43,723 nucleotides of DNA, taken from NCBI GenBank assembly GCA_947625165.1, contig CANQNH010000003.1:1-43723 (forward strand), in the 5' to 3' direction. Source of the stretch: an uncultured Clostridia bacterium (GTDB taxonomy: Bacteria; Bacillota; Clostridia; Christensenellales; UBA1242). Below are positions 34,927 to 34,956 of this stretch, piece by piece (within the stretch, counting starts at the first letter, position 1; every line of letters begins with the position of its first letter). The notes beneath the pieces are model-generated. The model did not search any database. It was not told the DNA's origin and worked only from the letters and a program-made list of their open reading frames with translations. The translations under genes and the position numbers were made by a program.

Positions 34927-34956
34927 ATTGTATCACGGGGGGGGAGTTCTTGTCAA
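34927..34956 (-). promoter_or_regulatory. Promoter TTGACA-N18(contains C8)-TACAAT
   Basis: Minus strand TTGACA (34951-34956), spacer AGAACTCCCCCCCCGTGA, TACAAT (34927-34932), extended -10 TGATACAAT. Confidence 0.75.

What the first reader, a model, noticed from the sequence alone, without database searches (positions are those of the whole stretch)
34927..34956. C8 homopolymer inside the promoter spacer of a surface lipoprotein: candidate phase-variation switch
On the minus strand, TTGACA - AGAACTCCCCCCCCGTGA - TACAAT places an uninterrupted C8 (G8 at 34937-34944) between a consensus -35 and an extended -10. The spacer is 18 nt, while two other lipoprotein promoters in the window (33025-33052 and 39551-39578) have the same TGATAnAAT extended -10 with 16-nt spacers, so loss of 1-2 C would give 17 or 16 nt. 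I noticed no other G/C homopolymer of this length in this AT-rich window. Slipped-strand changes in homopolymeric promoter spacers are an established phase-variation mechanism in pathogens such as Neisseria (opc, porA). The downstream gene encodes an exposed lipoprotein with a duplicated module.
Basis: partly seen in the sequence, partly recalled or inferred. Interest (0 to 1): 0.86.

Follow-up and report, generated by a model that had tools for sequence, protein, structure and literature searches.

The report
Genome-wide poly-C phase-variation switches
The run of eight Cs in this surface-protein promoter is one of about 38 similar C/G runs, mostly nine long, spread through the small genome of an uncultured gut Clostridia bacterium, where they sit inside promoters or reading frames and probably act as random on/off or high/low gene switches like those of Campylobacter and Neisseria.

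Summary
Observation confirmed. On the minus strand TTGACA - AGAACT-C8-GTGA - TACAAT has an 18-nt spacer and lies 75 nt upstream of a monocistronic lipoprotein gene. A single C8 in this window is not significant by itself (21% of shuffles have one). The weight of evidence comes from the rest of the genome. The 1.04-Mb assembly has 38 C/G runs of 8-10, 33 of them exactly 9 long, against about 0.1 expected. Thirteen lie between a -35 and a -10; about 19 are in coding sequence, mostly G9 near the 5' end (12 in frame, 7 out of frame). Across 41 genomes of the genus, promoter-with-tract patterns give 84 (C) and 39 (G) matches and none for reversed controls; in the rest of the order they are rare. 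The same promoter in two other species keeps a C9; in one the locus is syntenic, with neighbours 86-92% identical but the lipoprotein only 44%. Related tracts with near-identical flanks differ in length (8/9, 9/10, 8/10). Best reading: slipped-strand phase variation, this locus being one member of a genus-wide set. The mechanism is known; its scale in this lineage appears undescribed in the papers searched. Variation within one population and its effect on expression were not testable.

The parts
34951..34956 (-). -35 hexamer TTGACA (6 of 6)
34937..34944 (-). uninterrupted C8 tract (G8 on the + strand) in the promoter spacer; the proposed switch
   Evidence: orthologous promoters carry C9
34933..34950 (-). 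18-nt spacer AGAACT-C8-GTGA, longer than the genus mode of 16
34927..34935 (-). extended -10, TGA TACAAT (TG at 34935-34934, hexamer 34932-34927)
   Evidence: TGn before the -10 also kept in G003 and G024
34857..34863 (-). ribosome binding site GAGGAGG
33212..34852 (-). 546-aa lipoprotein gene (lipobox LTAC) with two tandem ~190-residue modules, 70% identical; no Pfam family; low-confidence beta-rich model
33173..33198 (-). intrinsic-terminator-like hairpin followed by T-run after the lipoprotein gene; suggests a one-gene unit
33025..33052 (-). separate promoter (TTGACA-16-TATAAT, no tract) of the next lipoprotein gene 32992-31694

Best explanation
The C8 tract is a slipped-strand phase-variation switch in the promoter of a surface lipoprotein. 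During replication the run gains or loses one C now and then, which changes the distance between the -35 and the extended -10 and so the strength of transcription of this one-gene unit. At C8 the spacer is 18 nt; losing one or two C would bring it to the 16-17 nt usual in this genus, so the assembled state is probably a weak or low state (inferred). The locus is one of about 38 C/G tracts of this genome, in promoter spacers (transcriptional switches) and in reading frames (translational on/off switches), a genus-wide contingency system much like that of Campylobacter. Shown: the anatomy, the enrichment, conservation of the tract in orthologous promoters, and length differences between related tracts. 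Inferred: replication slippage as cause, reversible switching within a population, and the effect on expression.
For: Anatomy. 33 exact C9 runs in 1.04 Mb against 2 exact C7, where about 0.1 runs of nine or more are expected. Eleven of 38 tracts lie just behind TTGAC on the C strand, binomial P about 2e-10; two more G-strand promoters. Genus-wide, the promoter-plus-tract pattern gives 84 C-type and 39 G-type matches in 41 genomes and none for the reversed pattern; in 237 genomes of the same order outside the genus it gives 11 matches, none in 6 genomes of other genera of the family. Spacers: 16 nt in 39 of 81, 15 in 13, 17 in 12; mean 15.5, 16.1 and 17.2 for tracts of 8, 9 and 10. Orthologous promoters in G024 (syntenic: MscL 92%, ABC transporter 86%, lipoprotein 44%) and G003 (lipoprotein 61%) both carry C9 between TTGACA and a TGn -10. 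Matching flanks with different tract lengths: G003 paralogues C9/C8; G002 paralogues C10/C8; G001-G035 C9/C10; G035-G036 C10/C9; G025 promoter copies G9/G10 with otherwise identical sequence. Coding tracts: 7 of about 19 genes out of frame at the tract, most of the rest in frame, mostly near a start codon with a ribosome binding site. In glycosyltransferase #23 the GGG is an extra residue in a loop where 59 homologues have none.
Against: No reads or second strain of this species were available, so length polymorphism in a population is not shown; the best database relative of glycosyltransferase #23 is 77% identical. Tract lengths are unusually uniform (33 of 38 are 9), whereas an active switch could be expected to spread more. 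MutS and MutL are present in all 41 genomes, unlike C. jejuni. This promoter's spacer is 18 nt, and 19 nt in both orthologues, never the modal 16. Some coding tracts lie in metabolic enzymes, not surface functions.
Confidence: 0.8

Rival explanations
1. The C9/G9 runs are the neutral result of a mutational equilibrium: slippage drives any long C/G run to nine, and they have no regulatory role.
For: Very narrow length peak; tracts also in metabolic enzymes; tract load differs greatly between species, 0 to 33 C9 runs; mutL of this assembly is frameshifted.
Against: Placement is not random: exact position between -35 and -10 with spacer lengths near the optimum, most coding tracts near start codons, and conservation of the tract in a syntenic promoter while the downstream protein diverged to 44%. 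Even if neutral in origin, spacing and frame changes would still alter expression.
Confidence: 0.1
2. The poly-C is a fixed promoter element, for example the binding site of a regulator or a structural element in the spacer, and its length does not vary within a population.
For: Consistent layout TTGACA-AAT-C9-GTGn-TAnnAT in many promoters.
Against: G-strand versions of the same layout exist; flank lengths around the tract vary; tract lengths differ between near-identical paralogous promoters; the same C9/G9 runs occur inside reading frames, some out of frame.
Confidence: 0.06
3. The tract is an assembly or sequencing artefact of a metagenome bin.
For: The assembly is a fragmented bin (56 contigs, 82% complete); homopolymers are error-prone.
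Against: The same architecture appears in 22 of 41 genomes for the C form and 16 of 41 for the G form, with zero in reversed controls, and at the orthologous place in two other genomes. An off-by-one error in this tract remains possible.
Confidence: 0.02

Closest known systems
Neisseria meningitidis opc, porA and fetA promoters (homopolymer between -10 and -35)
   Same: Homopolymeric C or G run between the -35 and -10 of a surface-protein promoter, where length is thought to alter sigma-factor binding (PMC2791445).
   Different: Different phylum and unrelated genes; here the tract is near 9 and the layout is repeated in about 13 promoters of one genome; length-dependent expression not tested here.
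Campylobacter jejuni poly-G contingency loci
   Same: Many G/C tracts per small genome, mainly 9-10 long, with insertion bias at G8 and deletion bias at G11 or longer said to hold tracts at G9/G10 (PMC8355987); coding tracts switch reading frame.
   Different: C. jejuni lacks a functional mismatch repair system (same source); here MutS and MutL genes are present in all 41 genomes, though this assembly's mutL is frameshifted. A large share of tracts here sits in promoter spacers.
Bifidobacterium breve sortase-pilus G-tracts
   Same: Replication slippage at an intragenic G-tract in a gut commensal changes reading frame (PMC9187656).
   Different: Two pilus clusters in B. breve and coding tracts only, against about 38 tracts of both kinds here.
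Invertible promoters of Clostridioides difficile and Bacteroides
   Same: Phase variation in gut bacteria, by promoter state (PMC11868660).
   Different: Site-specific recombination, not tract length; no inverted repeats are part of the layout here.

Membership tests
Simple-sequence-repeat phase variation (contingency loci) | Homopolymer of about 8 or more at a place where one base gained or lost alters promoter spacing or reading frame | tested here: met
Simple-sequence-repeat phase variation (contingency loci) | Tracts more frequent than chance and placed non-randomly | tested here: met
Simple-sequence-repeat phase variation (contingency loci) | Tract length differs between related copies with otherwise matching flanks | tested here: met
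   paralogues and orthologues in relatives; for the window locus itself C8 against C9 in two other species
Simple-sequence-repeat phase variation (contingency loci) | Length polymorphism among cells of one population | not testable with these tools
   no reads; no close strain found for the one coding-tract gene searched
Simple-sequence-repeat phase variation (contingency loci) | Expression changes with tract length | not testable with these tools
   needs a reporter or RNA data
opc/porA type: homopolymer in the promoter spacer | Poly-C or poly-G between -35 and -10 of a surface-protein gene | tested here: met
   lipoprotein signal in the translation
opc/porA type: homopolymer in the promoter spacer | Transcription is graded by spacer length | not testable with these tools
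   inferred from the spacer distribution only
Campylobacter-type genome-wide poly-G phasome | Many G/C tracts centred on 9-10 | tested here: met
   own genome 8:3, 9:33, 10:2; genus 8:152, 9:264, 10:48
Campylobacter-type genome-wide poly-G phasome | Lack of functional MutSL mismatch repair | tested here: inconclusive
   MutS and MutL in 41 of 41 genomes; only the window's own assembly has a frameshifted mutL

The most novel reading that the evidence does not exclude
An uncultured, small-genome Clostridia genus runs a genome-wide, tract-based phase-variation system, with more than a hundred tract promoters found in the 41 species sampled and a length set-point of nine, controlling lipoproteins, glycosyltransferases, enzymes and a sigma-70-like multi-domain protein. 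Its mutability may itself be switched by a frameshift at an A8 run in mutL.
Probability: 0.2. Interest if true: 0.78.

Novelty: new member of a known kind. Interest (0 to 1): 0.6.

Why it matters
Homopolymer switching is best documented in Gram-negative mucosal pathogens; in gut Bacillota the cases I found in print are mostly invertible promoters. A dense, genus-wide set of C9/G9 switches in uncultured gut Clostridia would mean that much of their apparent gene presence and expression is a population mixture that assemblies hide. It is directly testable in existing metagenome reads, because both promoter and coding tracts can be counted read by read.

Tried and rejected
Glycosyltransferase #23 was searched among 5.8 billion proteins for frameshifted siblings of the same species; the best relative was 77% identical, so no within-species test. 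Absence of mismatch repair as a simple genus-wide cause was rejected: MutS and MutL occur in all 41 genomes. Dispersed repeats as the source of the own tracts were rejected because their flanks differ from each other; some relatives (G032, G008) do carry one repeated tract element. Identifying the lipoprotein by fold failed: pTM 0.62 and no PDB match better than E 0.1. No Pfam or NCBIfam family above cut-off. A negative correlation between tract length and the rest of the spacer, expected if all promoters were held at one length, was not significant (rho -0.14, P 0.21).

Full report
OBSERVATION. The sequence is as described: on the minus strand TTGACA (34956-34951), an 18-nt spacer AGAACT-CCCCCCCC-GTGA (34950-34933), and TACAAT (34932-34927) preceded by TGA. 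An independent consensus scan picks the same promoter with 11 of 12 matches. A ribosome binding site (34863-34857) and a 546-codon lipoprotein gene (34852-33212) follow, then a terminator-like hairpin (33198-33173). The next lipoprotein gene has its own tract-free promoter (33052-33025, 16-nt spacer). The switch, if real, would therefore control one gene. A single C8 in this window is not itself significant (21 of 100 shuffles).

GENOME-WIDE. The assembly (1,038,144 bases, 56 contigs, 82% complete) has 38 C/G runs of eight or more, with exact lengths 8: 3, 9: 33, 10: 2, and only two of exactly 7. Extrapolating the run-length decay of the window gives about 0.1 runs of nine or more. I read the context of every one. 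Eleven are preceded within a few bases by TTGAC and followed by a -10-like hexamer; two more are G-strand promoters (#19, #31). Given the frequency of TTGAC in sampled own sequence, eleven of 38 has a binomial probability of about 2e-10. About 19 lie in reading frames, nearly all as G-runs on the coding strand and most within the first 75 codons behind a ribosome binding site. Twelve of these are in frame and seven are out of frame at the tract. Six tracts remain unclassified. The in-frame/out-of-frame sorting is my reading of open frames, not annotation.

GENES. Promoter-tract genes include three lipoproteins (#27, #31 and the window gene), several secreted or membrane proteins (#3, #9, #13, #16, #19), a NUDIX protein (#5) and a protein with sigma-70 region 2 plus repeated region-4-like domains (#11). 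Coding-tract genes include glycosyltransferases (#2, #23, #28), a polysaccharide pyruvyl transferase (#7), an ABC transporter (#29), two short-chain dehydrogenases (#34, #37), an aldo/keto reductase (#10), hydrolases and others. Gene #28/#30 carries both a C9 promoter tract and an internal G8 at which its frame is broken. In glycosyltransferase #23 the tract-encoded GGG adds a residue in a loop; none of 59 aligned homologues has it, which fits a recently grown tract at a tolerant place.

GENUS AND ORDER. In 41 genomes of the genus the pattern TTGAC-N(2-7)-C8-N(2-8)-TANNAT has 84 matches and its reversed control none. The G version has 39 and none. In 248 genomes of the order, the 237 outside the genus have 11 matches in 10 genomes, and 6 genomes of sister genera in the family have none. 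The genus holds 79, 152, 264 and 48 runs of exactly 7, 8, 9 and 10. Numbers per species range from 0 to 33 for C9. Spacers of 81 C-type promoters peak at 16 nt (39), then 15 (13) and 17 (12), and shift with tract length: mean 15.5, 16.1, 17.2 for C8, C9, C10. That is the behaviour expected if one C gained or lost shifts the promoter along a strength curve. The strength curve itself is inferred.

THE LOCUS IN RELATIVES. Genome G024 has the same gene order. The upstream mscL is 92% identical, the ABC transporter 86% and the lipoprotein 44%, and its promoter reads TTGACA-ATA-C9-ATTATGC-TAGAAT. G003 has a longer version of the gene (61% identical) with TTGACA-AATT-C9-ACATGA-TAAACT; synteny there was not shown. 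So the tract has been kept in this promoter while the protein changed much faster than its neighbours, and the length is 8 here and 9 in the two others. The spacer is 18-19 nt in all three, longer than the mode, so the assembled states may be weak ones (inference).

LENGTH CHANGES. Direct evidence that these tracts change length comes from related copies with matching flanks: C9/C8 between paralogous promoters of G003 (89% over 293 bases), C10/C8 between G002 paralogues, C9/C10 between G001 and G035, C10/C9 between G035 and G036, and G9/G10 copies in G025. Many other pairs are 9/9. Variation within one population could not be examined.

MISMATCH REPAIR. MutS and MutL are present in all 41 genomes. 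In the window's own assembly mutL is split by a frameshift at an A8 run in the linker; the 11 relatives examined have intact genes and no such run at that position. This is either an assembly error, a fixed loss, or a switch of mutability. Species with intact mutL also have many tracts (for example 25 C9 runs in G002), so it is not the general cause.

COMPARISON. Works like: Neisseria opc/porA/fetA, where homopolymers lie between -10 and -35 and are thought to alter sigma-factor binding (PMC2791445); and Campylobacter jejuni, whose tracts are held mainly at G9-G10 by opposing insertion and deletion biases (PMC8355987), which would also explain the peak at nine here. In gut Gram-positives, G-tract slippage is described for Bifidobacterium pili (PMC9187656). 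My searches of the held literature found no description of such a system in this lineage, but most subscription papers are not held.

VERDICT. Kind of system: known. Setting and scale: new to the sources I could search. Not shown: population polymorphism and expression effect.

Noticed in passing
L241 (G000:C7) about 2508-2515, minus strand; mutL 3929-1925: mutL of the window's own assembly is frameshifted at an A8 run in the linker; the 11 relatives examined have intact genes without that run.
   Followed up: partly
L073:2604-5099 (G000:C13), promoter tract at L073:2553-2561: A protein of more than 832 residues with sigma-70 region 2 and several region-4-like helix-turn-helix domains sits behind a C9-spacer promoter; a possible phase-variable regulator.
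   Followed up: partly
L086 (G000:C44), promoter tract and G8 at 834-841: One glycosyltransferase-like gene has both a C9 promoter tract and an internal G8 tract at which its frame is broken.
   Followed up: partly
L124, L134, L138, L142, L149, L150, L157, L166, L167, L175, L180, L190, L193, L227, L230, L231, L233: Mucispirillum genomes (another phylum) have many near-identical promoters of the form TTGACATTC9ATGATATAAT; no paper linking Mucispirillum to slippage phase variation was found.
   Followed up: no
L309, L310, L311 (G032, G008): A dispersed promoter element with a G8 spacer run recurs many times in G032 (17 of 19 exact C8 runs share the flanks A...G) and also occurs in G008; probably a gene family with tract promoters.
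   Followed up: no
own genome, 38 tracts: Strand asymmetry: promoter tracts are mostly C on the sense strand, coding tracts almost all G on the sense strand.
   Followed up: no
L261, L264, L267, L269, L271 (G019): A gene family with five copies each carrying the same C9/G9 run shortly after the start of an open frame.
   Followed up: no
window 12442-23991, minus strand: A 3849-codon open frame with no Pfam family above cut-off; a giant, probably secreted protein, not examined.
   Followed up: no
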